A stretch of 64,000 nt of DNA, taken from positions 87,294,441 to 87,358,440 of the forward strand of contig NC_088914.1 of the NCBI RefSeq assembly GCF_963576675.1, given 5' to 3'. A model generated the notes under the pieces. It saw only the letters and a program-made list of their open reading frames with translations. It was not told where the DNA came from and ran no database searches. This DNA comes from Euphorbia lathyris (Eukaryota; Streptophyta; Magnoliopsida; Malpighiales; Euphorbiaceae). The translations under genes and the position numbers were made by a program. This document shows positions 1 through 46,907 of the stretch, piece by piece; the stretch's first letter is position 1, and every line of letters starts with the position of its first letter.

Positions 1-63
1 ATCAATCGCTTCGACCGTCTTGTTTCAGGTTTTCGTCACAGGTCCTCCGACTCGGTGTCTACA
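1..63 (-). repeat. Start of the 3' LTR of the Tat/Ogre element
   Basis: Positions 1-63 match 17414-17476 with a single G/A difference. Read on the minus strand both begin TGTAGACACCGAG. This short overlap is the only part of the 3' LTR in the window, but it fixes the LTR outer boundary at 63 and 17476. Confidence 0.93.
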
Positions 64-1655: not shown

Positions 1656-4600
1656 ATGAATTTAGACGAATGGGATGGCACCAGAGGCATGGACGAGGTT
1701 TATGTGAACCTGGATAGAGTGGATACCTTCCACGACCCTACGACACACTTGAGCAGGACACGCTGCAACGAGGTAAGTGGTTTCTCACTTTTATTTGATT
1801 TGGACTCTAGGCTTTAGCACTCCTATACGAACATGATTTGCATGCTAACTCTTAGACTGCCTTAGAGGACTTTAGCTAGAAAATGTGAATTCCTTTATTT
1901 ACACGTAACACCTGTTTGTTTTTGTAAGAATGCGCGCTATATGCATGTGAATAGTACACTACGAATTTATGCATGTTAACAGTAAAAACGATGTGAATAG
2001 TAAAAACGTGAATAGTGCACGTGAAATAGTAAAAACGTGAATAGTGCACGTGAAAAACTTAGCTAATGCACGTGAATAGTAAAAACGTGAATAGTGACAA
2101 CGTGAATAGTAAAAACTTAGCTAATGCACGTGAATAGTAGACATGAATAGTGCACATGAATAGTAAAAATGTGAATAGTAAAAACTTAGCTAATGCACGT
2201 GAATAGTGAAAACGTGAATAGTAAAAACTTAACTAATGCACGTGAATAGTAAAGCCTAATCTATGTTCCTCGTCACCTGTAGACGAGTGTGGATAAAAGA
2301 ATTGACTAAACCTTACATAAATGATCCTACGGGAGAGATTTTTACAGAAAATCGGCCCTAATTGACCGGATGAACGAATACCTAGTTTTAACGCGTTCTC
2401 ATCACTCGCTTGCCTTAGGAGTTGTATTTAAATTTTCTTATCTTGTTCCTCTTTAGCTCATCAAGATTTCCGGGACCACTGCCGAGGTTCTTTCATAGTA
2501 TGATAGGCTGAGCGCCGCGGCGAGAGCCCGCGTGCAGGAGTTGGGCTTCGGACCCTTCATTGCAGCGCTGCCCCGCACCAACGGGGTGTGTGATCCCTTT
2601 GGCCTACGGGCCCTGTGTGAACGGTGGGTTGACTCGACCCACACCTTCCACCTTTCCTTCGGGGAGATGACCATCTCGCCCCGAGATTTTTCATTACTGA
2701 CCGGATTACGAGGGAGCAACACTTCCGTCCCTTTCCATTATGGCATGATGCGACCGCGGGTCGATGCTGCTAGGCTTGCCGCCTTGATAGGACCAGGAGT
2801 TCCTCTATGCGCCAAGTCTACCCCGGTGAAGTTTATTTCGACTGCTAGCCTCTTGAGTAGACGGGACTTCTGTGAGACTGATGCTACTGATCTGGCGGTT
2901 CGTAGCTTCCTTGTATATGCTCTTAGCGAGACGATTTTGGGCACGAAGGGCGGAAAGGTGCATGCGGGTCTCATCCAGGCCCTTAGCGATTTAGATGCCG
3001 CAGGTTCCTATGATTGGGCGGGGGCAGGCTTAGCTTTTCTCTACAAGTTTCTAGACCTGACTTGCCGGAAGCGTAAGGATTTCGGTGGTTACACCTTTGC
3101 TCTGCTGGTACGTGATGCCTTCTTGATTCGCCCGTCTTTGTTTTTTTTTTCTTTCTCACACTCCTAGTCCTTGTTTATACCGCAGGTGTGGGCGTACGAG
3201 AGACGCATCCTTCCCAGTCGGTCTCGACCTCGATTGAGAGCACAGAGGCCGCCTTTTATGGTTCGATGGAGAGATTTCGATCTGAGCGCTGAGAGGAGGC
3301 GGACAGTGCCATGGCTCCTAGATCGGATTGACTCATTAGTCCTCACACAGGTAGATTTCGCTTAGTCTTGCTAGACTTTGGCTTGAGTCTTTCTGACCCT
3401 TTTCCTTGTGCATATTTTTAGATTAAGTTCAGGTGGGACGATCTTGACTTTGGTCCCGAGTATGCATACACATCGATGATCCAGGAGCAGCAGTGCGTGC
3501 TCACCGGCCCTTGTGTGCGGGCGTGGTATTTGGGAGATCGAGGCATCACCGGAGTGAGTGATGTTCACTGGACGCCGGGGGAGATTCCCGTTTCCATGTT
3601 TGCTGTGCGGACTCTGCCCTTATCGACCATTCGTCGAGATCTGACCCATCATTTTGTCGGTAGAGTGGTCTGGGTTCACGCCCGAGGCCGCGAGCCTTAT
3701 TTGTCCACTTTACTGAGCGCGAGGGATGCCCCGGCGGCAGCGATGGAGGTAGATCCGGTGGCGGACGTGTTTTCGAGAGAGGCGGTCGAGGCCGTCTTTG
3801 GTCAGGCGGAGGTTCCGGTAAGTGATTCCGCCCTCTTTTCATTTTATCCATGGTATGCTCAGAGGTTTTATTGTGTGTTTTTTTTTTGCTTTTTTTGCAG
3901 GAGGGATCCTGGCGGAGTGCCCACCTATCTGATTTTTTCGACGATACTCGGGCTCAAACACCGGTGTGCGAGCGGCCCTATTTTGTCGGCGAGTCCTCCA
4001 GTGCAGCTCGACCGGAGAGGTCGTCCATAGGCGTGCCTATACCAGACTATGGGAGAGATTATGCTACGATTTGCTATGACGAGTCCGGGGCACCTTATGC
4101 GGGATTTGAGGCGGTCCCTCCTATCTTCTCCTCGAGGGTCCCGTTTGATCCCTCGGACGCTTTTCTGACCACGAGAGAGACCTGTACGGATTACGTAGGG
4201 CTGTCTGGTTATTTCCAAGACCGCCTCAGCTTGCGCTGCACCGATCACCTGGTATGTATCATTACTGTACTTTAGTGTAGTGAAATGTATGCATGTATGT
4301 ATGATTTATGTTTTCGCCTATGCTGCCTTTTATCTGTGTTTTTTTTCTTTTTCTGTAGAGTGATCTGCATGCCCATGAGCGGAGACAGAGCGAGCTAGTG
4401 CGGGAGGCTGATGCCAACGACCACTGGTCGAGGATGATGCGACGGGAGACTGAGGGTCGCCTTGCCGTCGAGGAGAGGGCACGTGATGAGTCGATCAGCC
4501 GCCTTGCTGCAGAGGAGAGAGCACGAGCTGCTGATGAGAGAGCATGGGTTTCTGATGAGAGAGCGCGAGTTTCTGATGAGAGAGCGCATGCTGCCGAGGA

Positions 4601-5143: not shown

Positions 5144-6637
5144 TTACGAAAAGTATTTCTTAAGCCTATCCAGATTGGTAGGTTCGGAGAATTCCATGCC
5201 GTCCATTGTGGTTAACTTCACCGCTCCTTTGCTTAGTATCTTCTTCACGACGAATGGTCCTTCCCAGTTAGGCCTAAACTTGCCCCTAGGGTCGGTGTGC
5301 GTCACACGAATCTGTTTCAGCACCAAATCTCCTTCTTTGATAGGACTGGTCTTGACTTTTTTATTGAAAGCCCGAGCCATCCTTCTTTGATATAACTGTA
5401 CATGGTAAAGGGCTTCTATCCTTTTCTCATCAACTAAAGCCAACTGCTCACATCGCCTCTTCACCCATTCCGCCTCGGGAATTTCTGCTTCCACTGCGAT
5501 TCTCAACGATCGCTTTTCAATCTCAATCGGCAGGACTGCTTCTGTTCCGTATACCAAAGAGAATGGTGTTGCCCCAGTCGAGGTTCTGACTGTCGTGCGA
5601 TAAGCCCACAACGCGAGTGGGAGGTGCTCATGCCAATTCCGATGTGATTCCACCATCTTTACGAGGATCCTTTTAAGGTTCTTATTAGCTGCTTCTACTG
5701 CCCCATTAGCCTGTGGACGGTACGGAGAAGACCTGTGATGTTCAATGCCATATTCTCGAAAAAGATTCCTTACTTCCCCCTGAAACTGGACTCCGTTATC
5801 CGTGATCATATGATGAGGCACTCCGAACCTGGTGATCAAGTGTTTTTCAATGAACTTTCTCATCTGCTTGGATCCCAGTTTGCTAAACGACTCTGCTTCT
5901 ACCCATTTGGTGAAATAATCGATGGCGACTGCAATAAACTTATGTCCATTTGAAGTATTAGGCCTTACTTCGCCGATGATGTCAATGCCCCAGGCAGCGA
6001 ATGGCCAAATAGGTGCTAGCACATGTAGTTCCATGACCGGAAGATGACTGCAATCGCCGTGGATTTGACAATCGTGACATTTCTTCGCATACTCGTTACA
6101 ATCTCTTTCCATGGTGAGCCAATAGAAGCCTTGCCTAATAATTTTCTTAGCTAGTACTGCTCCTCCCATATGGGCTCCACAAATTCCCGAATGTACTGAT
6201 TCCATCGCCTCGCGGGCTTCCCCCGCATCCAAGCATCTGAGTTGTAATCCATCAACGTGCCTTTTGTAAAGCAAGTCGTTGTGGATGATAAACTGACGGG
6301 CTAGCCTTCTAATCACAGCTTGATCCCTAGGTTCTGACTCTGCCAGATATGTTCCATCTTTCATGAAGTTCACGATATCGAAATACCACGGTTTTTCATC
6401 GGCCCCTAACAGCATTACGTCTTCGTAGCACGGTTTGTGAGATCTTCTCAATACTAATGGTTTCGAAGCAAGGTTCCGGGGGTTGTCCCAAACTGATACC
6501 AAAGTGGCCAAGGCATCCGCGGCCTGATTCTGAGCTCGAGGAATGTGATAGAAGCGACATTCTTTGAATCTCAATGCCAACCCTTCTAGCTGATCTAGAT
6601 ACGGAAGTAGCCTTTCCTCCCTTACCTCCCAGTTTCC
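5144..6637 (-). CDS. pol: Tat/Ogre pol, second part: end of archaeal-type RNase H plus integrase
   Basis: Same reading frame as the upstream pol part but separated from it by a TAA at 6638-6640. The first residues finish the archaeal-type RNase H, with the family IPRAQN..ADALA motif near 6510-6540. Integrase follows: zinc-binding HHCC (HSGICGAH and CHDCQIHG) and the catalytic D,D,E triad in WGIDIIG, MITDNG and VEAANKN. The C-terminal domain ends in LKKYFS before the stop. Counting from the TTG at 6580, the triad residues are D200, D261 and E296. All catalytic residues are present. Integrase joins the cDNA to host DNA, here apparently into copia-1. Confidence 0.92.
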   Translation of the reverse strand, partial: GNWEVREERLLPYLDQLEGLALRFKECRFYHIPRAQNQAADALATLVSVWDNPRNLASKPLVLRRSHKPCYEDVMLLGADEKPWYFDIVNFMKDGTYLAESEPRDQAVIRRLARQFIIHNDLLYKRHVDGLQLRCLDAGEAREAMESVHSGICGAHMGGAVLAKKIIRQGFYWLTMERDCNEYAKKCHDCQIHGDCSHLPVMELHVLAPIWPFAAWGIDIIGEVRPNTSNGHKFIAVAIDYFTKWVEAESFSKLGSKQMRKFIEKHLITRFGVPHHMITDNGVQFQGEVRNLFREYGIEHHRSSPYRPQANGAVEAANKNLKRILVKMVESHRNWHEHLPLALWAYRTTVRTSTGATPFSLVYGTEAVLPIEIEKRSLRIAVEAEIPEAEWVKRRCEQLALVDEKRIEALYHVQLYQRRMARAFNKKVKTSPIKEGDLVLKQIRVTHTDPRGKFRPNWEGPFVVKKILSKGAVKLTTMDGMEFSEPTNLDRLKKYFS

Positions 6638-9600
6638 TTATGCCTGTTCGATGATCAACTTGGAGTCACCCCAAATTTCGACATATGATGCTCCCAGTGC
6701 CGCTAATGACTCTAAACCATAAATGCACGCTTCATATTCGGCCATATTATTAGTGAGAGGGAAGGATAACTTCTTCGCCATCGGGATTCTTTCTCCTTCT
6801 GGTGAGATAAGCAGTACTCCTACTCCGACTCCACTCGAATTAACCGCTCCGTCGAAGAACATTTTCCATGGTATAACTTCGATTTCATTCAAATGTTCAT
6901 CGGGGAAATCATAGCTTATCTCTTCTTCTTCTGTATTCAGGGGTTGGTTGGCCAGAAATTCTGCCACGGCCCTCCCTTTGATAACCTTCTTCGTCACATA
7001 TTCAATGTCAAACTCGGATAAAAGCAACAACCATCTGGCTAACTTCCCCGTCAAGGATGGAGTTCGGTATAGATACTTCACGGGGTCCATCCGAGAAATA
7101 ATGATCACTTTATACGATTGGAAATAGTGCCGCAGTTTCTTCGTCAACCACACCACTGCCACACATGTCTTTTCGATCATGTTGTATTTGAGCTCATACT
7201 CTAGGAACTTCTTACTCAAATAATACACCACGTGCTCCACACCGGTGTCTCCCTTTTGAGCCAACATTGCTCCAATAGATCGCTCCTCAATCGCTACATA
7301 GAGGAGAAGCGGCTTTCCTAGTTTAGGCGGTCTCAGCACTGGCGGATTAGACAAATAGCTCCGGACGCTCTCCAAAGCTTGCTGACACTTATCATTCCAA
7401 ACAGCGGGTTGGTCTTTCCTTAGCAACTTAAAGATTGGCTCGCAGATTGTGGTGAGTCTCGCTATGAACCGACTGATATACTGAACCTGCCCCAGAAACC
7501 CTCTCACTTCCTTCTCATTTCTCGGCGCCGGCATTTCCTTTATAGCCTTCACTTTATCGGGATCCACCTCAATTCCCTTATTTCCAATTACATAGCCTAA
7601 GATTTTCCCCGACGAAACGCCGAAAAAGCACTTCTTCGGGTTTAACCTTAGCTTGAATTCTGCAATTCGGGCCAAAAACTTCTCGAGTGCGGCAAAATGC
7701 CCTTCCCTTGTCTCTGATTTGACCATCATGTCATCCACGTAGACTTCTACCTCCTTGTGTATCATGTCATGGAACAGGGCTGTGGCCATTCTCTGATAGG
7801 TTGCCCCGGCATTTTTCAAACCAAATGGCATTACTCTATAACAGTATGTCCCCCACTCAGTTGTGAACGAGGTTTTCGCTTTGTGCTTTTCGGCCATCTG
7901 AACTTGCATGTAGCCCATGAAACCGTCCACATTCGTGTGTAAGACGCTTGATGCTGCACTGTCGATCAATACATCGATATGAGGCAATGCGAACTCATCC
8001 TTGGGGCATGCCTTGTTAAGATCTCTGTAATCCACGCACATCCTCACTTTGCCATCCTTTTTCGCGATGGGCACTACATTTGCGACCCAAGGGGGATAGT
8101 CGATCACTTCGATGAATCCTGCTTCTAACTGCTTCTTCACCTCCTCTCTGATCTTATCTGCCCATTCGGGTCTCATACGTCGGAGCTTCTGCTTCACGGG
8201 CCTCGCCTCGGGATATGTTGGAATACGGTGAGTTACGATTGATTGATCGATTCCAGGCATGTCTTCGTATGTCCAAGCGAATACAATTTCGTATTTTTTA
8301 ATTATTCTCTCAAATTCTTTTCTCTCTTCAATAGTTAATTCTTGAGCAATTTGTATAAGTTTAGGATTTTCATCCGTACCAAGATTGAAAGTTGACATTT
8401 CTATCGTATTGATTTCAAATGTAGGCATGTTATATGAATGAGAATGCATGGAATGATCATGATCGACATCAAGCAAGTAAGCAAAATCAGAATTCATTTC
8501 ATTGATAGCGTGGGTGATTACATCATCGGACTCAAACAAAGCAGTAATACAATTTTCATCCTCAGGGTTCTCGGGCTCCTCATGAACCTTGGAGGTACTG
8601 GGCTCGTCCACCGCTCCCGCAGTCGCTTCGATGGTGATGACCTGCTCCTCGGCATTTAAATCCAGCATCATGATCTCCTCGACAAAGCAGCTCGTCTTTC
8701 CTTTGCCCCAGTCGGCGACATCATTGAAGATTTCAAACCCTGGCAGAATCTTTCCTTCCGTGCTGGTCCACGACTCGGAGGTTCCCGAATACGGCTTTCC
8801 ATGCCCCTCGCTTACAAAATGCTTCCTCAAGCCTATTTTTCCTTCTGCACTCATGTTGGATGGACTCCCCTGCTCATATCCCAAACCCCTCCGGGTTTTC
8901 TGACTTTTAAAATCCGGAAACTCCGACAACCCCTGATGGTGTGCTCCTAATCCTATTCCCGGGATGAAACCTCCCTTCATCATCTTTACCACATCGGTGG
9001 TCATGCTCGACTCGTAAATCCCAGAGACTTGGAATCCGGAGAAAAGTTGAGGCTCAATTCCCAATGCTGCCACCGAGCTCAGTTTCTCAGCTCTAATTGT
9101 CACTATCTCCTCCCCGAAGGGGAACTTGATCATCTGATGGAGTGTGGAGGGCACACCTCCCAACTTGTGGAACCATGGGCGTCCCAATAATACAGCAAAG
9201 GTTACCGGGATATCCAGCACCGTGAACTTAGTTTCTTCCTCATGCGGCCCCACTTTCAACTTGGCCTTGAAGACTCCTTCAATGTGCCTACGGCTGTCGT
9301 CATATGCTCTGATCACTGTTTCAGAAGCTGTCAAGTCTCCTCTCTCTACTCCCAACCTCGACAAGAGTTTCAACGGACAGACATTAATAGCCGATCCATC
9401 ATCGACCATCACACAGCTAGTCTTCTTCCCGTTAATTTCCGCTCGGATATACAATGGCTTATTATGAGCCTTCCCCTCTTCTAGAAGATCTTCGTCGGTA
9501 AATGTGATCTCAGTCTTCTTTCGGGCCATAATTGCCCCTACTAGCGCTGCCGGCTCGGTATCGGTGGAAATAACCAAATTCTGCAACTCCTTCATCAGGT

Positions 9601-9730
9601 TCTCACGATGGTACTTAGAATGGCATAAAACTTCCCAGACCATAGACTTAGCTTGCGTCTTCTTCAACTGTTCAAGAACTTGGTCATCGGGCTTAGGAGC
9701 CGACCCTTCTCCAATCTCAGTCTCTACCAT
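6638..9730 (-). CDS. pol: Tat/Ogre pol, first part: protease, G-patch, RT, RNase H, start of archaeal RNase H
   Basis: 1030 residues. Aspartic protease around 95-190 with VMVDDGSAINV (D110/D111), the DxGS form seen in Tat-type proteases. A G-patch-like segment (MKGGFIPGIGLG, then RRGLGYEQG) spans about 250-290. Reverse transcriptase spans about 500-720 with VDGFMGY (D602) and YVDD at 664-667. The first RNase H (about 805-930) lacks the usual first catalytic Asp (YVAIEE). A second, archaeal-type RNase H begins at WKMFFDGA (D960), with NNMAEYEA and WGDSKL. This second RNase H marks the Tat lineage. The frame ends at TAA 6638-6640 inside that domain and continues in the same frame beyond it, so the break is one nonsense mutation. 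The start overlaps the gag stop (ATGGTAG), placing pol in a different frame from gag. Confidence 0.93.
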   Translation of the reverse strand: MVETEIGEGSAPKPDDQVLEQLKKTQAKSMVWEVLCHSKYHRENLMKELQNLVISTDTEPAALVGAIMARKKTEITFTDEDLLEEGKAHNKPLYIRAEINGKKTSCVMVDDGSAINVCPLKLLSRLGVERGDLTASETVIRAYDDSRRHIEGVFKAKLKVGPHEEETKFTVLDIPVTFAVLLGRPWFHKLGGVPSTLHQMIKFPFGEEIVTIRAEKLSSVAALGIEPQLFSGFQVSGIYESSMTTDVVKMMKGGFIPGIGLGAHHQGLSEFPDFKSQKTRRGLGYEQGSPSNMSAEGKIGLRKHFVSEGHGKPYSGTSESWTSTEGKILPGFEIFNDVADWGKGKTSCFVEEIMMLDLNAEEQVITIEATAGAVDEPSTSKVHEEPENPEDENCITALFESDDVITHAINEMNSDFAYLLDVDHDHSMHSHSYNMPTFEINTIEMSTFNLGTDENPKLIQIAQELTIEERKEFERIIKKYEIVFAWTYEDMPGIDQSIVTHRIPTYPEARPVKQKLRRMRPEWADKIREEVKKQLEAGFIEVIDYPPWVANVVPIAKKDGKVRMCVDYRDLNKACPKDEFALPHIDVLIDSAASSVLHTNVDGFMGYMQVQMAEKHKAKTSFTTEWGTYCYRVMPFGLKNAGATYQRMATALFHDMIHKEVEVYVDDMMVKSETREGHFAALEKFLARIAEFKLRLNPKKCFFGVSSGKILGYVIGNKGIEVDPDKVKAIKEMPAPRNEKEVRGFLGQVQYISRFIARLTTICEPIFKLLRKDQPAVWNDKCQQALESVRSYLSNPPVLRPPKLGKPLLLYVAIEERSIGAMLAQKGDTGVEHVVYYLSKKFLEYELKYNMIEKTCVAVVWLTKKLRHYFQSYKVIIISRMDPVKYLYRTPSLTGKLARWLLLLSEFDIEYVTKKVIKGRAVAEFLANQPLNTEEEEISYDFPDEHLNEIEVIPWKMFFDGAVNSSGVGVGVLLISPEGERIPMAKKLSFPLTNNMAEYEACIYGLESLAALGASYVEIWGDSKLIIEQA

Positions 9731-12537
9731 GGTGCCTTTCCCTCGGCCACACGACCTGATCTCATCATTACCGCAATTTCCGGCTCATCATCTGATTCGT
9801 CCCAGATGTTAATAGGAACCCTTCGATTAGCATCCTCCTCGTCCGAGGAACTCGCCCAAATGTCTACGACCATTAAATCCATGACGTGAGGAATACTCGG
9901 ATTCAGGAAAAAGGGATCCGCCGATCCAAACAAAGCCCAACCTATCAACTCATCATAGTCACGGAGGGACACTCTACTCATCCTTCTCGCGGCCAACGAA
10001 ATAGCACCTCGTTGTATGCACATAAGCTGCACCTTATCGCTCATTGTCTCATTACACTGCTCATAACGGTGCCTCCACCTTCTAGCATAATCCACAAAAT
10101 GTTCCTCGGGGAATTGCCTAATCCTGTCCAGATCATCCAGGGATCCCGTCCATGGAATGTATATTTCATATCTCGCCACAAAGGCATTTCGGAGCGGTAT
10201 CCAATGGCACATCTCTTCCTCTGACAGACCCTGATGCCACAATAAGGCTTCACCCATCAAGGTTTCCGGAAAATGTTCATGCAACTCACACTGTGGAAAT
10301 CCAGCGTTATACATATGATCGCGGAATATCCTTGCATGCTCCACAGGATCCCGGTATCCACCATACCTAGGCATCGCTAACACCGCATCGGGTGTTTGGT
10401 AAGATGGGGAATCAGGGGTTTGCTCTGCTAGCATCCATACCGTATACTCCTTGATAAATCTCTTCGTCATAGCTGCCCAATCGGTCTTAACGTACATCGG
10501 CAGCGACATATACCACATCAGTGGTTCACCCATCAGTGAATTACAAAACAAGCTAGTGATCTCTTCTTCTTTGAAACTTAAAGCTGTCATAGCCGACAAG
10601 TAGAAGTGAAGGTGCTCCATAGGGTCCTTATTTCCGTTATACTTGCTCACCCTCGGCAATGGACGCTTGATGGGTCCAATCTGCATTGCAAAGTGCTCCG
10701 CAATTCTATCTTCAGCTCTTTGATACTTTTCTAGAAACAAATCCGACAACCGATCCCAATCGTGCTTGCAAGAGTCGGGTAATGAATGGAACCATTCCAA
10801 AGGCTCACCTACCAGCGAATGGTGGAACCACTGAGCAATTTTATCTACCCCGAAGGATTCAATAAACATGTCGTGCATATACTCACGCAAGTGCACTTCG
10901 GGATCCCTTCCTCCACTAAACAAACCCAAATTTGGCACGATAGTCCGAGACGACCTTTCTCCGATCTCTTCGGCACTATCCTCGTCGTATGGTGCTCCAC
11001 CATCCGATCCTTCCTCCATTGGTTCGTCCGCTTGTTCCTCACCCAAGAAGGACACATACAAACCATTTCCCACATTGCTTCTTTCGACGGAGTCCAACAG
11101 CTCCTCTACATCTTCCTCAAAAGATTCCATCACCACAGTTTCCGTCAAACCAGCTCCGATCGCGCTCACCCTATGATTAGGCAATGGATTGCGCCTAACG
11201 GAGGGGTTTGCTGACGAAGGATCAGCTATCTTCTTCTCCTCAATCAAATCTTGGATTTCGTGTTTCAGCCTCTCGCAATTCTCAATCGTATGTCCATAAC
11301 TGCTGTGGAATTCATAATACCCTCTAGCCTGAATCTGCGGAGTAGGTTGAGCTTTTTTATACGGGGTAAGGGCTTTTAACAATCCCTTCTTCTGCAGACG
11401 TTCAAAAACTTTCGCATAGGTCTGATCGAACTTGGCGAACCGCCTCTTTTCGATGGCATTAAGATCAACCACTTTCACTGCCGCAGATTCTGTACTCGCG
11501 CTAGGCCCTCCGGCACTATATCCAGACTTCGTCCACTTGGTATAAGCTTTCTTCGGCTCCCCATCTCCTTCGACAGTCAAGGCACAACTATACATCTGAT
11601 TGAAATCTGTGAACGGCATATATCTCAACTCATTCTTAATATATGGCAACGTGTTGCCAACCACCATTCGGATCTGATCCTGCTCAAGCGGCTTCTGTTT
11701 CATGACCGCGGCCTTAGCCCTCCATCTTTTCACGAAATCTGAAAGGGATTCCCCCGTCTGCTGCTTAGTGCTCTCTAACTCTTTCAAAGTGACTTCCAGC
11801 ATGGTGTTAAAGCTATACTGAGCGATGAATGACTTCGCCAACTCCTTCCAATCCTTCTTTGTCACCATTGGCAATGCATGGAACCATGTGAGGGCAGCCC
11901 CCTCCAGGTAGGTGTTAAACAGCCCCAGGACTTGATCCTCAGTCAGGATCGTGTACTTCATTACTGCAACATACTGATTCATGTGAGCGGTGGGATCTCC
12001 AGTTCCATCGAACTTTTTCATGTCAGGGAGCCGGAATTTCAGAGGCAAAGTTGTTGCTGTCAAACAATTCTTCAAGTTATAGAAATCTTGACTCCCGGAG
12101 CTTCCTCCGCGCAAGTCCTGCACTTCCTGTGTGATGTGTTGCCTCCACTCCTCTTCCTTAGCTTTCTCCTTCTCTAACTGTTTTCGGACATAATCCTGAT
12201 AATCCTCCTCATTCCCAAAGCGAGGGCCATCGTTCACCTCATTCTCAGCACGCTTACTACCACTCTTGTTGTCCTTCAGTGCTAACTCAGCTAGCTGGGC
12301 CAAGATTGCGGCCAATTGATCGTTGATATTATTCACAGAATTCTCCAATTCAGCCACCTTCTCGTCGGTTGCAGACATACTGACGGAAGACTGAGTATAC
12401 TCGGATGAAGACGATTCAGAAGCCACAACTACTGATTCGGGACTGTCTACTCGCAACTGATCAAACTGTCTGACAAGCCGATCACTCTCGCGAAACCACA
12501 ACCGCTTAATGATGACGTCTGCGCGAACGGTATCCAT
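9724..12537 (-). CDS. gag: Tat/Ogre Gag polyprotein with four gag-core modules
   Basis: 937 residues from the ATG at 12537 (the frame is open further to 12633, with another ATG at 12555). A coiled coil lies at about 58-87. A classic retrotransposon gag core follows (about 170-313; FDGTGDPTAH, LTWFHALP). A zinc-knuckle-like CxH motif lies at about 407-424 (YEFHSSYGHTIENCERL), lacking its first Cys. After an acidic linker the gag core recurs three more times, starting with DPEVH (545), DPMEH (638) and DPVEH (730). In all four modules Asp, Trp, Trp and Tyr fall at i, i+37, i+49 and i+60. Modules 2 and 3 are half-length; module 4 also has the downstream RRWR segment, like module 1 (KRWR). Gag forms the particle that packages element RNA. 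The stop overlaps the pol start as ATGGTAG. Confidence 0.9.
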   Translation of the reverse strand: MDTVRADVIIKRLWFRESDRLVRQFDQLRVDSPESVVVASESSSSEYTQSSVSMSATDEKVAELENSVNNINDQLAAILAQLAELALKDNKSGSKRAENEVNDGPRFGNEEDYQDYVRKQLEKEKAKEEEWRQHITQEVQDLRGGSSGSQDFYNLKNCLTATTLPLKFRLPDMKKFDGTGDPTAHMNQYVAVMKYTILTEDQVLGLFNTYLEGAALTWFHALPMVTKKDWKELAKSFIAQYSFNTMLEVTLKELESTKQQTGESLSDFVKRWRAKAAVMKQKPLEQDQIRMVVGNTLPYIKNELRYMPFTDFNQMYSCALTVEGDGEPKKAYTKWTKSGYSAGGPSASTESAAVKVVDLNAIEKRRFAKFDQTYAKVFERLQKKGLLKALTPYKKAQPTPQIQARGYYEFHSSYGHTIENCERLKHEIQDLIEEKKIADPSSANPSVRRNPLPNHRVSAIGAGLTETVVMESFEEDVEELLDSVERSNVGNGLYVSFLGEEQADEPMEEGSDGGAPYDEDSAEEIGERSSRTIVPNLGLFSGGRDPEVHLREYMHDMFIESFGVDKIAQWFHHSLVGEPLEWFHSLPDSCKHDWDRLSDLFLEKYQRAEDRIAEHFAMQIGPIKRPLPRVSKYNGNKDPMEHLHFYLSAMTALSFKEEEITSLFCNSLMGEPLMWYMSLPMYVKTDWAAMTKRFIKEYTVWMLAEQTPDSPSYQTPDAVLAMPRYGGYRDPVEHARIFRDHMYNAGFPQCELHEHFPETLMGEALLWHQGLSEEEMCHWIPLRNAFVARYEIYIPWTGSLDDLDRIRQFPEEHFVDYARRWRHRYEQCNETMSDKVQLMCIQRGAISLAARRMSRVSLRDYDELIGWALFGSADPFFLNPSIPHVMDLMVVDIWASSSDEEDANRRVPINIWDESDDEPEIAVMMRSGRVAEGKAPW

Positions 12538-14438: not shown

Positions 14439-14457
14439 TTCCCCAGCAGAGTCGCCA
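14439..14457 (-). other. Primer-binding site of the Tat/Ogre element
   Basis: Minus-strand TGGCGACTCTGCTGGGGAA begins two bases after the LTR end (CTAACA). This TGGCGACTC..TGGGGA form is the one I associate with Tat/Ogre elements (thought to match a tRNA-Arg 3' end). The tRNA identity is from memory. Confidence 0.82.
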
Positions 14458-16821
14458 CTTGTTAGACGAGGTGCCGCGGCCTAATCTCCCGGGCGGACCG
14501 GGGGATGGACAACCTCATGGCGACGTAAGCGGTGATTGGCGCCGAAAGCAACCAATCGTGGAATCAAGCTGCTCGGCAGGACCGGAGCTCGGAGATATGG
14601 AAGAGTCGCCACCCACGAATGGGAAAATGAACACCGATCCCTTGCGGGAGACCGGTGTGGGTTCGGGAAACTTAGGTACGAGCCGAGAAGGCTAGCTCCT
14701 TTCCGGAGAAAGGCTACTAGGCACCCCGACATCGCCCGGTTATGAACCACCGGCCTCCTACTCAGCATGTTAGGCGATAACGGACTAATCGTATGCTTCT
14801 TTAAGTTTAAAATTCATTTGAAACCCTTTTCTTTCTCTTTTTAGAAACCGTTTTGAGCATATGATATTGAAAAGCCACATTAGTAAAGAATCGCCCATTT
14901 ATGTTTATACATACACAGAGAGGGGGAAGAAAGAAGTGGTTTATTTACAACCGTGTTAAATATTATGTCGTGTGCTTATTCTACATTAACTTATTTCCCC
15001 AAAACGGATTTATTTACATGGTTCGCACCTTAATCGCCGTCGGAACGATTAGGGTGCGTTTCAAAACCCCGTTTGATGAAGTTCACTCGAATCGCCGTTG
15101 GAACGACTCGAATATTTGAAAACGTTTGAGATAAAAACCTTTAATGAGAAAACGTGGTTAAACATACAAGTCAATTTTACTTTGTACAAATTCTTTAAGA
15201 AAATGGTTCAAAACTCTATTATTTGCCAAGAAAACGATTTTAATTACAATGTTCGCTTAATCCGTCGTTGGAACGGGCTAAGGTTTTAAAACGTGATATT
15301 TTGAAGACGGTTTGAAATATTAACAAGAATGCCTCTATTTATTTACATTACAAAAAAAACATTAGTTTAAATAATTCAATTTGAAAACTCTCTTTTTGTG
15401 ATTTATTTTCCCCTTTTTATTTAATGTACTCTTTACCCATTGTAATTACAATAATAACCACATTTAAGCCCAAAATTAATTTTTCAAAGTGAAGCCCATT
15501 AGAAACATGGACTCACAAATGGCCAAAAGAGATAAAGAAAATAATATAGATATATATTTACACATTTTAGCCCAAAAGACATAAAATAAGAGTAAAAGAA
15601 AGTATACTATCTAATACATATATAAGAAAGAGTAATGAAAATAATATATTTATACTTTAAATATATGAAAATAGTAGATGAAATTCATAAATAAGAAAAT
15701 AGCATTTATCACTCAAAATAACTCTATTTATCGATAATTAACATAACCCAAATATACTCCGAAACTATATATATATACATAACTAATATAATCTTAATGT
15801 CAAAAAGACTATATGTTTATCCCCTAATATCTACTAATTGTCTCACAAAATACCCAAGTAAATAACATTTAAAATAGATTTTAATGTGACTTAAACAAAT
15901 AATAATAAGAAAAAAAGAGAAAATAATACATACATATATAAAAATAAAATGGAACACCACTCTTCTAAAATAATTATATATGTTAAAATTCTAAAACAAT
16001 TTGAAAATCATATATTACTCAACTATATATATATATATACCAAGGATTAGAAGTCTAAGAGTTAAGAAAAGGGGACCGAAATGACATTTTTTACATTTTG
16101 GTAGATTTACGACGGAAAATCCGTCGGTAAACAGCCTTTAGTGACAGAATTGGCAAATTACAGCATCACTCCAACGTTTTCCAGATTTGTTCAAAAGCAT
16201 TAAATTAAATCTAATTCAATCGTTTTGGACTTCCGAACTACCAAAGATGGATCATAGTCGAAAACGGAAGTTCCTAAAACGATGTTTTTATTTTAAAACG
16301 TTATTTGGAAACCTCTTTTAAATAAAAAAACTTATAATTACAACATTTTCGATACCCGAACTACCTTTTTATCGGATCACGGTTCGTATTGGGATATCCA
16401 AAACGAGGTTTTTATTTTAAAACAAAACCGAATTTTATTTAACACGAAACGAAAATTAAATAAATACGTTAACTAAATAAAACGTGACAAAATAAATAAA
16501 TAACTAAAGGAATAAAAACTATAGCATAAAAAAATAAATAGAAGGAGAGAATAAATTAAATAAAATAAAGAGTCTAGTCCTCGGATAATACCTTTAATTC
16601 AGTATCTGACAGTTGAAGCCGATTGATTCCACGAACCGCGAGCTCCCGTTTTTTATGAAAAATTTAGTAAAAATTGAACTTAAGAAATTTAGAGATTTTC
16701 AATTTTAGGAAAAAAAATGTTTTTTTCCCAAAAAATCCACTTCCTCTCTCTAGAAAAATATCTAGTGTGAGAATGCTCTCCCCCAAAAAATCCTCCCTTC
16801 CTTTACCTTGGGATCCGTGCC

Positions 16822-16829
16822 CTTATATA
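16822..16829 (-). promoter_or_regulatory. TATA box of the Tat/Ogre 5' LTR
   Basis: Minus-strand TATATAAG in the context CCCTATATAAGGG. Transcription would start about 30 bp further, near 16790-16795. It lies about 20 bp from the block of GC palindromes at 16848. Confidence 0.65.
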
Positions 16830-16847
16830 GGGAAACGGATCCCGGAA

Positions 16848-17060
16848 CAATGGGCGACGCCCAAAAAAATTTGGGCGTCGCCCATTGTTGTTGGGTGGCC
16901 GCCCAACCTAGTGTTGGGCTACCGCCCAACCTTGTTGGGCGGCCGCCCAACATGAGTTGGGCGAGCGCCCAACGCGAGGTTGGGCGCCCGTGCCCAACCC
17001 TCATCGGGCGTCCGCCCGACGCGTTGGGCGTTCGCCCGACGTGGTTGGGTGCCCGTCCGG
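16848..17060. repeat. Tandem GC-rich palindromes in LTR U3
   Basis: Eight to nine consecutive near-palindromic units of the form GTTGGGCGnnCGCCCAAC, about 21-23 bp apart. The first (16848-16887) is a 40-bp perfect inverted repeat, 18-bp arms around AAAA. They end about 20 bp upstream (minus strand) of the TATA box, so they sit where promoter-proximal sites would be. Confidence 0.9.
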
Positions 17061-17476
17061 TGACCCTCGGGGCGTGCCCCGCACCATCGGACGCGTGCAC
17101 TCCGTGGCCGCCGAGCGCGCGTTCCGCGCAGCCAGACGCTCCACGTCGCGGCCGCCGAACGCGCGCCTCGCGCTGCCAGGCACATGTGCTCAACGGCCCA
17201 TGAGGGCGCGCACCGTCAGCGGTCCCAGGCATTGCTCGGACGTCGAGAGCGTGCCACTCGCGGTGCATCCGACGGACGCCGCTCGCACGTCCCGAGCCGT
17301 CAAGCGGGCATTCGACCATCGTCGTCCGCGTGCGGGATGCCGTTGCGTGCCCGCGCCGTGCCGTTAATTTTCCTCAGCTTATTATTCTTTATATATTTTT
17401 CAAAACTTCCGGAATCAATCGCTTCGACCGTCTTGTTTCAGGTTTTCATCACAGGTCCTCCGACTCGGTGTCTACA

Positions 17477-18464: not shown

Positions 18465-19325
18465 TTAAGACAGTGAAACTGTATTTATTTCAATATAAAA
18501 CATACCAGATGTAGAAGCACCGCCTTTTCCCTTCTTGAGGGTGGCTAGATACTCCTTGCAGTTTCTCTTCCAATGCCCGTCTTTACCACATAAGTGGCAT
18601 TCTCCTTTGGGCTTCTTCACTTCCTTTCCCTTGGACACAACTTTCTTACCTTTCTTGGGATGTTTAGGATTGGGAAAATTCTCTTTCCTTTTCTTCGATC
18701 CCTCAATTACAAGAGCCGATATGGTCTTGTCTTTCTTCATATTGGGCTCAACTGACTTGAGCATGTTTGCAAGCTCTTCAAGAGAGGTTTGCAAGTCATT
18801 CATCTGATAGTTCATAATGAACTGTGAATAACTTTCTGGGAGGGATTGAAGAATTAAGTCAACACTTAATTCGTTATCCATCGCAATTCCAATACTAGAA
18901 AGTTTGGTAATGTAGCCAATCATCTTGACACAATGTGTCATGACTGATGTGCCCTCTTGCATCCTGCAATGATATAACAGCTTGGATATCTCGTAGCGTT
19001 CGCACCTGGTTTGTTTCCCAAACAATTCCTTTAGGTGCATGATGATGGAATAGGCATTCATCTCCTCATGTTGCCTTTGTAATTCCGATGTCATCGATGC
19101 AAGTATGATGCATCCGGCATGATCGTCATCAGCCTTGTGCTTCTGATAAGCATCAATTTCCTCAATGGGAGCATCATCTTCAGGGACAGGGGGTATCGAT
19201 GTATCAAGTACATACCCAATTTTCTCGAACTTCAAAACAATTTTGAGGTTGCGAAACCAGTCGGTGAAGTTTGAACCATTCAGTTTGTTATCGGTAAGAA
19301 TGTTTTGTAGATTGGTTTTAGTCAT
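18465..19325 (-). pseudogene. gag: Copia-1 Gag
   Basis: 286 residues opening with a real ATG. It has the copia gag pattern LNGSNFTDWFRNLK, a long helical region, and a zinc knuckle CHLCGKDGHWKRNC (Cx2Cx4Hx4C) near residue 240. The frame stops at a TAA (18465-18467) directly before protease in the same frame. Ty1-copia elements normally read gag-pol as one frame, so I read this as a nonsense mutation. Confidence 0.87.
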
Positions 19326-28396: not shown

Positions 28397-29980
28397 CTAG
28401 GTAGGGTTTTCCTTCACATAACGCCTCTTCTCTATGGGCTTTAGTCCCATTCCTTTCGATGATTTTTCAACTTGATCTCTATTTAACCCTTTGGTTAGCG
28501 GATCCGCTATGTTATCCTTTGATCCAACAAAATCAACAGAAATAACACTTGTTGAGATCAGTTGTCTAACGGAGTTATGTCGACGACGCATATGTCGATG
28601 TTTACCGTTATATATCCCATTCTGTGCTCTCTTAATCGTTGCTTGATTATCACAATGTATACAAATTGTGGGCACAGGTTTGGACCACATAGGAACATCC
28701 TCCAAGAAGTTTCTTAGCCACTCAGCTTCTTCTCCTGCTTTATCTAAAGCTACAAACTCAGACTCCATAGTGGATCTCGTTATAATTGTTTGCCTTGAGG
28801 ATTTCCAAGATACTGCTCCTCCTGCTAGAGTAAACACATATCCACTCGTGCCTTTGGAATTTTTTATATCAGATATCCAACTTGCATCAGAGAATCCTTC
28901 TAACACGGCAGGCTCTCTCGTATAGTGCAATCCATAATCACGAGTATATCTTAAATACCGAAGTATTCTTACAATGGCTTTCCAGTGGATTTCCTCTGGA
29001 TTACTCGTGTATCTACTTAAACTGCTGACAGTAAAAGCAATATCAGGCCTTGTACAACTCATGAGATACATTAGACTGCCTATAACTTTTGCGTATTCTA
29101 CTTGGTTAACGCTTTCACCTTTATTTTTACATAAATGTTGGCTAGTGTCGATTGGAGTTCTGGCAATACAAGAATCATTCTTACTAAACTTGTCAAGAAT
29201 CTTGTCCACATAGTGTGACTGAGTCAAGATGATACCACTAGGTGAACGTTTGATTTGGATACCCAAAATCACATCTGCGAGTCCCATATCTTTCATATCA
29301 AACCGTGAGTTTAACATGTCTTTGGTACTCTTCACCATCTTGTCATTACTTCCAACAATAAGTATGTCATCAACATACAAACACAAAATGATATATCCTT
29401 CATTTGTAGTTTTGACATAAATACATTTATCACACTCGTTTATTTGATAGCCGTTTATCATCATGACATCATCAAACTTCTTATGCCATTGTTTTGGTGC
29501 TTGCTTTAATCCATATAAAGACTTCACCAATTTACAGACTTTTCTTTCTTGACCTGGAGCTACACAACCTTCGGGTTGTTCCATATAAATCTCTTCATCA
29601 AGATCTCCATTCAAGAAAGCTGTCTTAACATCCATTTGATGTATTTCAAGGTTCCGCAAAGCGGCGATTGAAAGTATCATCCTAATAGATGTTATCCTAG
29701 ACACGGGAGAGTACGTGTCAAAGTAGTCAAAACCTTCTTTTTGTCTATAACCTTTTATAACCAATCTGGCCTTATACTTATCAATTGTTCCATCTGCTTT
29801 CATTTTCCGTTTGAAAATCCATCTAGAGCTTAGTGGTTTCGTTCCCGGAGGAAGATCTACTAATTCCCATGTATGGTTTTGCAATATGAATTCAATTTCA
29901 CTCCTTATAGCCTCTTTCCACAAAGGGCTTTCCGTTGAGCTTACAGCTGCCTTGTAGGTCTGAGGCTCTGCCTCTACCAT
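28397..29980 (-). CDS. Copia-2 reverse transcriptase and RNase H
   Basis: About 527 residues, open from the frame change near 30035 to the stop at 28397. RT (about 35-270) shows [29 protein letters not shown] (catalytic Asp) and YVDD in [12 protein letters not shown]. RNase H shows [27 protein letters not shown] and a DPLTKGL tail, all expected for copia elements. RNA is copied into cDNA within the particle. Catalytic residues are intact. The real polyprotein starts upstream in gag; the start given here is only the first Met of this frame. Confidence 0.92.
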
Positions 29981-30012
29981 ATAGGTTAGAAAATCTGGAC
30001 CAAATGATTTTT

Positions 30013-32268
30013 CTACCCTAGCTCTCTTACTCCTTCTAGGCTCAGCCTCTTTTCAACATCAGTTTCTTGTTGAGGGTCCTGACTGTTATCATCAACAGTT
30101 TCTAAAGTCCGTTTGGGTCTCGAACCGTCTTCTCTTTCCTTACAAGGAAATATATTTTCAAAGAATGATGCATTCTTTGATTCCATGATGGTGTTCTTAT
30201 GAATCTCAGGATTTTTAGATTCATGCACAAGAAATCTATATGCCTTACTATGAAGCGCATAGCCAATGAAAATACAATCCACCGTCTTTGGACCTATTTT
30301 CATTCTTTTTGGCAATGGAGCCATTACCTTAGCAAGACACCCCCACACTTTCAAGTAATTATAGGTAGGTTTTCTTCCTTTCCATAATTCATATGGGGTC
30401 TTGTCTAATTTCTTACGGGGCACTCTATTTAAAAGGTGATTTGCCGATAAGATAGCTTCCCCCCACATGTTCTGTGGCAACCCAGAACTGTTTAGCATTG
30501 CGTTCATCATTTCCTTTAAGGTACGATTTTTACGCTCCGCCACTCCATTAGACTGAGGAGAGTATGGTGGTGTTACCTCGTGAATAATACCATGTTGCGA
30601 GCTAAATTCCCCAAATGGTTCAACATATTCACCACCACGATCACTTCTCACCACTTTAATCTTTTTATTAAGTTGGTTTTCCACCTCTTGTTTATAGAGA
30701 ATAAATTTCTCTATAGCCTCGTCTTTGCTTTTAAGCAAATATACATAGCAATATTTGGTACTATCATCAATGAAAGTAATAAAGTATTTATTACCTCCTC
30801 TAGTTTGAATAAACTTTAAGTCACAAATATCACTATGTATTAGATCAAGTGGTTCTGTTTTTCTTTCCACGGAATGGAATGAACATTTTGTTAATTTTGA
30901 CTCTACACAAATTTCACATTTATGTTTATAATCAATTGGGAATGAAGGGATATGATCTAAATTAATTAATCTACGCATCGTATTAGAATTAACATGTCCA
31001 AGTCTACCATGCCATAAATCAAATGACTCAATGATATAAACGGAAGAAACGTCATTCTTATTAATATTCATTGAACTTGGATTACAAGAAATTGCATTAA
31101 ATTTCCACATCCCATTGGATACATATCCTTTTCCCACATACATTCCCCCTTTAGTCAAAATAAACTTTTCGGCTTCGAAGACCATCCTAAAACCATGTGT
31201 ACTAAGGATGCTTCCTGAAACCAAGTTCTTCCGAATTTCTGGAACATACAAAACATTCTGCAGTTTTACTTCCTTTCCAGAAGTCATCTTCAGAATTACA
31301 GTCCCATTCCCCTTGATCATTGAGGTAGCAGAATTTCCCATAAAGAGCTTCTCTCCAGTTTGAGGAGTCAGTTTAGCAAAGGAATCCTTATCACAACAAA
31401 CGTGACGTGTGGCACCAGTATCTAGCCACCATTCCCTTGGGTTGGAATCAATCATATTGACTTCCGACACCACAGCACATAAATCAATCTCTGATACATC
31501 TTGTTCAATGGTTTCCATTACATGTGTTTCATTTGGCCTAAACCTCTTTGGTCGCTTGCAATTAGATGACATGTGACCCTTTCTGTTACAATTGTAGCAT
31601 TTTCCACTGAATTTGGTATTTTTGGATATGCCACCTTTAGGACCCAATATCCGCTTCTTGCCTTTGCCTTTCTTGGAGTTCTCATTTGTCTCCACCATAT
31701 TTGCCTTAGCCACAGACTGACTAGCCATATTGGAGACTTTCTTCTCCGTGCCTCTATTGTCCTCCTCAATTCGGAGTCGGACAATAAGTTCCTCAACTGT
31801 CATTTCCTTTCGCTTATGCTTAAGATAATTTTTGAAATCTTTCCATCCAGGCGGCAATTTTTCTATTATTGCTGCCACTTGGAACGATTCAGAAATTGAC
31901 ATACGTTCGACATGGATTTCATGGATAATTAGTTGTAAATCTTGCACTTGACTTACAACTTTCTTAGAATCTACCATATTATAATTCAGAAATTGCCCAA
32001 CTAAGAATTTCTTAGCCCCAGCATCCTCTGATTTATATTTATGGTCCAGAGATTCCCATAATTTCTTTGCCGTTTGCTTGACTTGGTAAACACTGTAAAG
32101 TGCATCAGTCAAGCCGTTTAAAATATAATTACGGCAAAGGAAGTCAGAATGCTTACATGCTTCCATTGCATTAAAGGCAGTAGTAGCATCTACCTCATCC
32201 TCTCTGATTACAGGAGGATCATCCTTTAAGGATTTAGCCAAATTAAGCATAGTAAGGTAAAATAACAT
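30013..32268 (-). CDS. Copia-2 Gag (main part), protease and integrase
   Basis: 751 residues. A UBN2-type copia gag lies at about 20-190. The zinc knuckle [14 protein letters not shown] (Cx2Cx4Hx4C) lies near 223-236. The protease active site DTG is in [13 protein letters not shown] (about 283). Integrase follows: HGRLGHVN...CEICVESK zinc finger, [19 protein letters not shown] and [11 protein letters not shown] (D,D,E intact). The frame leaves the true frame near 30035, close to an AAAA run, and ends at 30013; RT follows in another frame. Upstream, the TAA at 32269-32271 separates it from the gag N terminus in the same frame. Confidence 0.92.
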
Positions 32269-45420: not shown

Positions 45421-46017
45421 ATGGCTGCCCCTATAATCAACTTCGACAGCCCCTACCACCTTCCACCGAATGAAACTCCGGCCTTATCCCTCGTCTCGCA
45501 AGAGCTTTCCGGATCCAACTATCATCAATGGTCTCGGGCCGTTAAAGTTGCCCTCATGTCCAAGAACAAATTTTCGTTTGCTGATGGAACCATCAAGGCG
45601 CCAGCTTTGGATGATCCAATGTACAACCAATGGGAGAGATGCAACAACATGGTCATCTCGTGTATAAACCATGCTATCTCCCCCTCCATTGCTCGAAGCA
45701 TTATGTGGTTGGATAAGGCGGAGCAGATATGGGCTGATCTGAAGGAGCATTTTGCTCAGGTAGATTCGTTGAGGATTTTGGAGCTCCGACGAGAGATCCA
45801 TAGCCTGATACAAGGTAACAGAAATGTTACTGAATATTTTACTAATCTAAAGATACTTTATGATGAACTATTGAACCTGCGACCCATGCCCAAATGTACG
45901 TGTCGGACGGCGTGCAGCTGCGGTGCCTTCAAGATCTTACGAGATCAACAAGACGCGGACCAAGTGATCACATTTTTACAAGGATTGAATGTATCCTACT
46001 CCACCGTATGCTCCTAG
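45421..46017 (+). pseudogene. gag: Copia-3 Gag (N-terminal part)
   Basis: 198 residues from a real ATG 34 bp after the PBS. It matches the copia-like gag N terminus plus UBN2 region: ALSLVSQELSGSNYHQWSRA, KNKFSFADG and HSLIQGNRNVTEYFTNLK, then a Cys-rich CTCRTACSCG typical of this subgroup. A frameshift near 46000 (after LQGLNVSYS) ends it. The zinc knuckle downstream (about 46229-46275, CTYYGNTGHTEDIC) has lost its second Cys. Confidence 0.88.
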
Positions 46018-46364
46018 ATACTCCTCATGGAGCTGTTGCCGTCGCTCAACAAGGTTTATGCCTTGTCTATTCAACATGAACGGAAGATTGGCCTAGTACC
46101 TGTCAAATAAATAGAGGGAAATGAAAGCAATTCGTTCGCAGGTTTCACTAACACACAGGGAAGGCAAAACAACAATCGAAACAATAACTCAAGATATGCG
46201 AATCGAAAAAACAACAACAGAAATACATCCTTGTGCACTTATTATGGAAATACAGGTCATACTGAAGACATATGCTTCAAGAAACATGGCTATCCGCCGA
46301 ACTATGGGAATAGAAAAAAGGAGGGAATCCTTTCAGAACTAACCAACCCAAGGCCAACTCAGCA

Positions 46365-46907
46365 GTGAATCAGGGCAAAGACAATGGGGATTCTGGTGAG
46401 GAAGATAACAGGCAGGCAAACGCAGAACCGTTCACTCTAACCAAGGACCAGTATCAGACGCTAGTTGCCCTATTGCCACTGAGCCATTTAGGAAAGGCCC
46501 CAGCCTCAGGCAGCAGCGTCAACACCTTTGTTAAGGGAGACAGTTCTGGTAAAAGCCTAAACCTTAACTCTGTTTCATCATGCTGGATAATAGAAACAAG
46601 AGCCACGGACCACATCATTTGTGACACAAAACTATACACTTCATATACAAAAATTGACAAATGTTGGGTAAACCTGCCTAATGGAGAAAAGGTCAAGGCA
46701 GAATATGTTGGTACTGTAACCCTAAGTCCGCGACTCGTCTTGCATAATGTCCTGTGTATACCCGCATTTGATTACAACCTCATATCCACTAGTAAATTGC
46801 TAGACACCGGTGATTTATGTGTTGTGATAACTGGGTCCATGTGTGTGATACAACAAGTTGAAAGAAGATTGACTTGGCTAAGGAGCATGAAGGCCTTTAC
46901 TATTTAG
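46365..46907 (+). pseudogene. Copia-3 protease region
   Basis: 180 residues. The protease active site reads WIIETRATDHI instead of the expected W..DTGATDH: both the catalytic Asp and the Gly are replaced, so the enzyme should be dead. Downstream LVLHNVLCIPAFDYNLISTSKL is the usual post-protease segment. A frameshift near 46880 joins it to the integrase fragment. Confidence 0.85.

What the first reader, a model, noticed from the sequence alone, without database searches (positions are those of the whole stretch)
9949..12036. Gag with four gag-core modules in identical register
Seen directly: the Gag frame contains four segments of the type DPxxH ... GExLxWxxxLP ... W ... Y. In each, Asp, Trp, Trp and Tyr lie at i, i+37, i+49 and i+60 with no gap. 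The modules start at residues 181, 545, 638 and 730 (from ATG 12537). The last three repeat every 92-93 residues, and all follow the zinc-knuckle-like motif, where Tat/Ogre elements normally go on to protease. Modules 1 and 4 also share a downstream R-W-R segment. The frame is intact over the whole length, so selection has kept it. A capsid protein with four covalently linked gag cores would be an unusual architecture; I know of no described plant element with it.
Basis: partly seen in the sequence, partly recalled or inferred. Interest (0 to 1): 0.88.

Follow-up and report, generated by a model that had tools for sequence, protein, structure and literature searches.

The report
Plant retrotransposon Gag with repeated capsid domains
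A jumping gene in caper spurge makes a shell protein that carries four copies of the front half of the usual capsid domain instead of one, and the extra copies look kept by natural selection, so its particles may be built in a way not described before.

Summary
The Gag frame (ATG 12537, 937 aa) has four capsid (CA) modules in exact register. HMMs built from module 1 relatives find four CA N-lobes but only two C-lobes: N+C, zinc knuckle, N, N, N+C. So it is not four full gag cores but one CA plus an N-N-(N+C) unit in the spacer between NC and protease. The element is a complete, about 20.4-kb Ogre-like Tat retrotransposon of Euphorbia lathyris. In the same genome all 49 scored matches (this copy included; 14,228 first-look candidates) span the whole Gag at 96-100% identity. 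In related subfamilies (67-69% identity where measured) 19 of 20 fetched loci have the same order of modules. In a tree each module groups by position, so the architecture is older than the subfamilies. Shared polymorphisms give N/S ratios of 0.07-0.10 in modules 2-4 against 0.07 in CA1; the copies were picked by protein score, which lowers all values. The modules are constrained protein, not a relic. My searches found no description of such a Gag. Best reading: the extra CA unit takes part in particle assembly; that step is inferred. Not tested: other species, the particle, Gag cleavage.

The parts
9724..12537 (-). Gag frame of this copy, 937 aa from ATG 12537; family start probably Met54 at 12378
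11818..12036 (-). Module 1, CA N-lobe (residues 168-240)
   Evidence: sequence match to Arc and HMM of module 1 family
11548..11817 (-). Module 1, CA C-lobe (residues 241-330)
11242..11325 (-). Zinc-knuckle-like NC segment (about residues 405-432); in this copy tyrosine stands where the relatives have the first cysteine
   Evidence: alignment with P0002-P0004
10711..10944 (-). Module 2, CA N-lobe alone (residues 532-609)
   Evidence: N-lobe HMM 45 bits, no C-lobe hit; Pfam 25.0 bits; not modelled with confidence
10432..10665 (-). Module 3, CA N-lobe alone (residues 625-702)
10162..10389 (-). Module 4, CA N-lobe (residues 717-792)
9883..10161 (-). Module 4, CA C-lobe (residues 793-885)
   Evidence: C-lobe HMM of module 1 family, 18 bits at residues 799-868; not modelled with confidence
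9727..9882 (-). Gag tail / linker to protease (residues 886-937)
6638..9730 (-). Pol frame: protease, G-patch, RT, RNase H, start of archaeal-type RNase H; ends at an in-frame stop
5144..6580 (-). Rest of Pol in the same frame: end of archaeal-type RNase H, integrase
14460..17476 (-). 5' LTR, 3017 bp, flanked by target-site duplication GCCCT
14440..14457 (-). Putative primer-binding site
   Evidence: assignment to tRNA-Arg is recalled, no tRNA was aligned
1..63 (-). First 63 bp of the 3' LTR; the rest lies left of the window (L049)
2532..3167 (+). Antisense ORF with plant mobile domain (PF10536), a common extra ORF of Ogre elements

Best explanation
This is an Ogre-like Tat Ty3/gypsy retrotransposon of Euphorbia lathyris whose Gag carries a second, expanded capsid unit, N-lobe + N-lobe + (N-lobe + C-lobe), between nucleocapsid and protease (shown). 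The unit is old, is shared by diverged subfamilies of this genome and is under purifying selection about as strong as on the normal capsid (shown, with copies picked by protein score). The mechanism I think most likely (inferred): N-lobes of CA build the rings of five or six in the dArc capsid, so the covalently linked N-lobes assemble into or onto the same shell, either as linked ring subunits or, after protease cleavage, as a second capsid protein that co-assembles with CA1. This may suit a particle that must hold an unusually long RNA (element about 20.4 kb).
Against: No particle, cleavage or binding data exist, so the role in assembly is inference. No oligomer was modelled. Foldseek E-values were weak (best 0.13 and 0.20), and module 2 and the C-lobe of module 4 were not modelled with confidence. 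Module 2 and the N-lobe of module 4 evolve faster between subfamilies (58% and 47% identity against 78% for module 1), which could mean a different role from CA1. Window-family copies were picked by best protein score, and the second subfamily only by open frames, which lowers all N/S values; I know no reason why it should favour one segment over another. In the second subfamily CA1 is not more constrained than the modules, and the N-terminal region (0.23) is like both.
Confidence: 0.55

Rival explanations
1. Modules 2-4 are cut out by the element's protease and act as a Gag-derived regulator that interferes with assembly of its own or competing Gag, as Ty1 p22/p18 does.
For: Ty1 p18 is a single CA lobe that associates with Gag and restricts transposition (PMC8458377, passages). 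The genome holds a protease-less subfamily that keeps the same Gag, so competition between Gags is plausible. Module 4 N-lobe and module 2 are the fastest-evolving modules.
Against: In the family form modules 2-4 are in the Gag polyprotein, so they would be made in the same amount as CA1, unlike p22, which has its own transcript. Module 3 is as conserved as module 1 (77% and 78%).
Confidence: 0.2
2. The extra N-lobes are peptide-binding adaptors that recruit host factors, like the mammalian Arc N-lobe, and not shell parts.
For: The mammalian Arc N-lobe binds peptides; in dArc the same site lies in the middle of the capsid rings, so binding and assembly may exclude each other (PMC8121366, passages). 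Modules 3 and 4 match Arc N-lobes. Isolated N-lobes without C-lobes fit a binding array.
Against: No ligand is known; the pocket was not analysed; dArc N-lobes did not bind the peptide that human Arc binds.
Confidence: 0.15
3. A chance in-frame duplication or capture with little or no function, carried along in one recent burst.
For: Three database proteins, one of them 97% identical, end after the NC spacer without modules 2-4. P0003's own locus lacks the modules in the 3.4 kb fetched (L079). One of 40 fetched sister copies (L027) has a stop at residue 502, close to where P0002 ends.
Against: Present in 49 of 49 scored matches and in 19 of 20 loci of diverged subfamilies; purifying selection; modules share only 41-48% DNA identity with each other, so they are old. 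P0003's locus is the exception among 20, and P0002 is probably one truncated copy (its place was not located); the Hevea protein is untested.
Confidence: 0.03
4. Assembly artefact, or an unrelated host gene fused to gag.
For: None found.
Against: Same structure at dozens of places on many contigs; the modules are CA domains by profile and fold.
Confidence: 0.01

Closest known systems
Ogre subclade of Tat Ty3/gypsy elements
   Same: Archaeal-type RNase H between RNase H and integrase, 3-kb LTRs, plant mobile domain ORF, tandem repeats near the 3' LTR, NC before protease
   Different: [quoted passage not shown] here Gag has four N-lobes and two C-lobes, and protease and RT share a frame
Arc / dArc capsid proteins (related to Ty3/gypsy Gag)
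   Different: One N-lobe and one C-lobe (PMC8121366, passages); host genes
Ty1 p22/p18 and Drt2
   Same: Isolated CA lobe made by a retrotransposon or derived from it, acting beside full Gag (PMC8458377, passages; Drt2 seen only as a PDB title)
   Different: A C-terminal lobe made from a separate transcript; here N-lobes within the Gag polyprotein
Orchid Ogre-like elements with 2-ODD domain; planarian Burro giants
   Same: Large gypsy elements that took up extra domains (PMC9289625 and PMC6431247, passages)
   Different: Foreign domains, not copies of capsid; the orchid screen filtered out Gag-type domains before counting, so it could not have listed this
TR-GAG elements
   Same: Gag-only non-autonomous elements, like the protease-less subfamily seen here (name seen in a search listing; what they are is recalled)
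   Different: No statement on repeated CA lobes seen; no TR-GAG paper was opened

Membership tests
Retrotransposon Gag capsid (Retrotrans_gag, CA fold) | Matches the family profile in each module | tested here: met
   4 stretches in full Gag, 3 in residues 505-937; module 3 cut out alone is below the cut-off
Retrotransposon Gag capsid (Retrotrans_gag, CA fold) | N-lobe followed by C-lobe | tested here: not met
   Met for modules 1 and 4; modules 2 and 3 have no C-lobe, so these two are isolated N-lobes and not full CA units
Retrotransposon Gag capsid (Retrotrans_gag, CA fold) | Fold like solved capsid N-lobes | tested here: met
   [not shown]
Tat clade of Ty3/gypsy | Second, archaeal-type RNase H domain | tested here: met
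   RVT_3 after RT_RNaseH in the pol frame and again at the start of the integrase frame; interrupted by one stop in this copy
Ogre subclade | aRH between RH and integrase (shared with Retand) | tested here: met
   feature from PMC6317226
Ogre subclade | Plant mobile domain in an extra ORF (57% of Ogre elements) | tested here: met
   PF10536, E 6.2e-20, antisense ORF; frequency from PMC6317226
Ogre subclade | PBS complementary to tRNA-Arg | tested here: inconclusive
   PBS sequence located; not aligned to a tRNA here, assignment recalled; feature from PMC9289625
[quoted passage not shown]
   Protease and RT in one frame; 7 stop-free Gag matches lie in open frames of 2470 codons. I therefore say Ogre-like
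Ogre subclade | Position in a reverse transcriptase tree | not tested
   No reference RT sequences were fetched
Ty1 p22-like Gag restriction factor | Made apart from Gag and blocks particle function | not testable with these tools
   needs expression

The most novel reading that the evidence does not exclude
A retroelement lineage has evolved a multi-lobed Gag in which a second capsid unit of three N-lobes and one C-lobe is linked to the ordinary capsid and is an obligate part of the shell, giving a particle lattice (mixed or linked rings, or a larger shell for a 20-kb element) unlike any known retrovirus, Arc or Ty3 capsid.
Probability: 0.35. Interest if true: 0.88.

Novelty: new variant of a known kind. 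Interest (0 to 1): 0.74.

Why it matters
The solved Gag and Arc capsids that I know of (recalled) use one N-lobe and one C-lobe per subunit. A high-copy plant element whose Gag keeps four N-lobes and two C-lobes under selection makes it possible to ask directly how far the CA lattice can be rebuilt, whether the lobes can be uncoupled, and whether capsid expansion goes with very long RNA genomes. It also shows a blind spot: a domain survey of plant retrotransposons that sets Gag domains aside cannot see repeated Gag domains.

Tried and rejected
Homology by protein database: residues 505-937 found nothing in two searches (5811 and 2960 candidates, none at E <= 0.001 and E <= 10). Residues 1-540 found three relatives, of 7992 candidates scored, that all end after the NC spacer. 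This first looked like evidence that modules 2-4 were peculiar to this copy; the genome searches spoke against that. Viral contigs: two scans, no relative. Bacterial and archaeal contigs: one scan, no relative. Solved structures by sequence: the tail alone and modules 2-4 alone gave only unconvincing matches; the full Gag gave Arc; the mixed profile gave Arc (E 2.4e-07) and, weakly (E 0.6 to 1.8), retroviral CA C-terminal domains. One search compared modules 2-4 with an alignment that contained the same Gag, so it was a self-match and is not used; one search replaces it. The structure model of residues 505-937 is poor overall (mean pLDDT 41.6).

Programmed frameshift: the gag stop overlaps the pol ATG (ATGGTAG) with GGGAAAG upstream, which suggested -1 frameshifting. 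The RNA shows no unusual structure (z -0.05), and seven other Gag matches lie in open frames of 2470 codons, so I take the break as private to this copy (inference).

Own duplication after the Euphorbia-Hevea split: at 25 of 74 sites where three Euphorbia Gag copies agree and differ from Hevea Gag, modules 2, 3 and 4 match Euphorbia 4, 7 and 2 times and Hevea 4, 5 and 3 times, so nothing ties them to the Euphorbia Gag. Duplication before that split and capture from another element cannot be told apart. A first dN/dS script stopped with an error part-way and was rerun; between subfamilies dS is saturated for several segments, so only values within a subfamily are used. In one search the support printed for m1 (85.8/79) is a rerooting slip; one search reads the split as 93.1/91. 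Wanted and not obtained: other Tat families of this genome, by a search with the Hevea protein, and copies chosen without regard to protein score.

Papers: the phrase 'two gag domains' was counted in PMC7755394 by the search but is not in the main text held; 'tandem gag' in PMC13172572 means GAG, POL and ENV in a row; the other rows were judged from title and abstract start only.

Full report
What was checked. The Gag frame on the minus strand runs from ATG 12537 to a stop at 9724-9726. The spaced motif D-x36-W-x11-W-x10-Y occurs at residues 181, 545, 638 and 730 only; of 20,000 shuffles of the protein 25 held at least one match and none two. Pfam's Retrotrans_gag finds four stretches in Gag and three in residues 505-937 alone.

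So Gag reads: N-terminal region, CA1 (N+C), zinc knuckle, spacer, N, N, N+C, linker, then protease in pol.

The element. LTR start TGTAGACACC at 17476, LTR end 14460, primer-binding site 14457-14440. The 3' LTR begins at 63 and continues left of the window; it was fetched as L049. The 3017-bp 5' LTR matches it at 98.2% with 48 substitutions, K2P 0.016; with substitution rates that I recall (7e-9 and 1.3e-8 per site and year) this is 0.6 to 1.2 million years. Both ends carry GCCCT. The element is therefore complete, about 20.4 kb by arithmetic, and inserted in a copia element (the copia frame beside it was read by eye; copia gag further on). It has an archaeal-type RNase H and an antisense plant mobile domain ORF, which the 2019 survey reports in 57% of Ogre elements (PMC6317226, passages). 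I call it Ogre-like because no RT tree was made and the prevailing Ogre intron arrangement is not met. The species follows from P0003, named Euphorbia lathyris by its source, which is 100% identical at one place in the window's own genome.

Is it more than one odd copy? The window's genome (1.02 Gb) was searched with the whole Gag: 14,228 first-look candidates, only the best 49 scored, and all 49, this copy included, span query residues 1 to 935 or more at 96-100% identity; 29 of 49 have no stop inside the match. For 7 of those 29 the tool gives an open frame of 2470 codons, so the family form is probably one gag-pol frame (inference). Of the 48 copies other than the window's I fetched 40; 14 of the 40 carry stops.

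The database relative P0003 ends soon after the zinc knuckle region. A genome search with it scored 95 of 16,819 candidates. I fetched 20 of these places, chosen mostly for long open frames, and looked for each module separately. The one exception is P0003's own locus (L079), which lacks everything after the knuckle within the 3.4 kb fetched. The 10 open ones are 67-69% identical in protein to the window copy. A tree of N-lobes from eight of these Gags (the window and 7 of the 10 open loci) with Hevea and P0003 puts every module with its counterparts of the same position (splits, SH-aLRT/UFBoot: m2 98.5/98, m3 75.7/71, m4 98.7/100; m1 with Hevea against modules 2-4 93.1/91). The four modules had thus become distinct before the subfamilies split. 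Modules 2-4 are no closer to Euphorbia module 1 than to Hevea module 1, so they are at least as old as the split of those Gags or were captured from elsewhere.

Selection. Among 41 copies of the window family, changes seen in two or more copies give N/S per site of 0.07 in CA1 (11 N, 43 S), 0.07 in module 2, 0.09 in module 3, 0.10 in module 4, 0.04 in residues 54-160 (4, 26), 0.17 in NC plus spacer and 0.13 in the tail. Changes seen once give 0.26 to 0.99. Because the copies were the best protein matches, these values are biased low; I see no reason for the bias to favour one segment. Among 10 open copies of the second subfamily, pooled over 45 pairs, dN/dS is 0.17 and 0.27 (CA1 N and C), 0.28 (m2), 0.15 (m3), 0.22 and 0.20 (m4 N and C), 0.23 (residues 54-160), 0.36 (NC and spacer) and 0.31 (tail). 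Between subfamilies module 3 is as conserved as module 1 (77% and 78%), module 2 58% and module 4 N-lobe 47%. In this copy, residues 505-937 have no stop in 433 codons (chance about 8e-12 from base composition), and codon usage fits the sense frame.

A second observation from the relatives: in none of the 19 loci was any of pol residues 1-300 found at E below 1e-4. Pol similarity begins at pol 317-324 in 17 of 19 and at pol 401 in two; in 8 of 19 the frame ends at the same place in what was pol. This subfamily is protease-less and presumably non-autonomous, yet 10 of the 20 fetched loci keep the multi-lobed Gag open, and it is under constraint.

Mechanism. Shown: the modules are CA lobes, belong to Gag, are old and are under constraint. 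Inferred: they serve in the particle. N-lobes form the pentamers and hexamers of the dArc capsid (PMC8121366, passages). Linked N-lobes could fill several places of a ring, or, cut out by protease, form a second capsid protein. Rivals are a Gag-derived regulator as in Ty1 copy number control (PMC8458377, passages) and a peptide-binding adaptor as in mammalian Arc (PMC8121366). Nothing here decides between them; the strong constraint on module 3 and the presence of a complete CA in module 4 favour assembly.

Known or new. Searches for repeated Gag or capsid domains in the open-access library listed nothing that I could recognise as such a Gag; two suspicious phrases were followed up and were not. 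Passages of three plant papers (PMC6317226, PMC11963269, PMC7264820) speak of GAG and of extra ORFs, not of repeated CA. A screen for extra domains in plant LTR elements filtered out Gag-type domains beforehand (PMC9289625, passage) and could not have listed it. No paper was read whole, and most subscription papers are not in the library, so this is no proof of novelty.

Limits. One species. No expression, particle or cleavage data. Gag copies picked by protein score. The genome search machine answered only two of many requests, so other Tat families of the genome were not examined.

Noticed in passing
L062-L078, L080, L081 (19 of 20 fetched relatives): Related subfamilies lack the protease and G-patch part of pol; 8 of 19 share the place where the frame ends in former pol. 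A protease-less, presumably non-autonomous lineage that keeps the multi-lobed Gag.
   Followed up: partly
9724-9730: In this copy the gag stop overlaps the pol ATG in another frame (ATGGTAG), with GGGAAAG just upstream; no RNA structure support, and some other copies lie in long frames that would hold gag and pol together.
   Followed up: partly
about 6638-6640, minus strand: One in-frame stop inside the archaeal-type RNase H splits this copy's pol.
   Followed up: no
about 11314-11316, minus strand (residue 408): The zinc knuckle of this copy has tyrosine where three database relatives have the first cysteine.
   Followed up: no
2532-3167 and 3476-4030, plus strand: Antisense plant mobile domain ORF between integrase and the 3' LTR; the second ORF, with no Pfam match, may be its next exon (exon idea is a guess).
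   Followed up: no
252-838 and 861-1224: Two 39-bp tandem arrays, 15 and 9 copies; the unit is 13 codons, so a repetitive frame stays open on the plus strand.
   Followed up: no
16871-16999: GC-rich short repeats with palindromic core in the 5' LTR.
   Followed up: no
8873-8983, minus strand (pol residues 250-286): G-patch domain between protease and RT; also reported in plant gypsy elements including Hevea (PMC9289625).
   Followed up: no
17477 onward; 18465-19325; 28397-32268; 45421-49664: The element sits beside copia sequence on the same strand (copia gag at 18465-19325); two further copia elements lie in the window, with coding sequence split into separate frames.
   Followed up: no
P0002, P0003: Public protein entries for this Gag end before modules 2-4; P0003's locus lacks them and P0002 is probably a truncated copy, so protein searches with modules 2-4 find nothing although the genome holds many copies.
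   Followed up: partly
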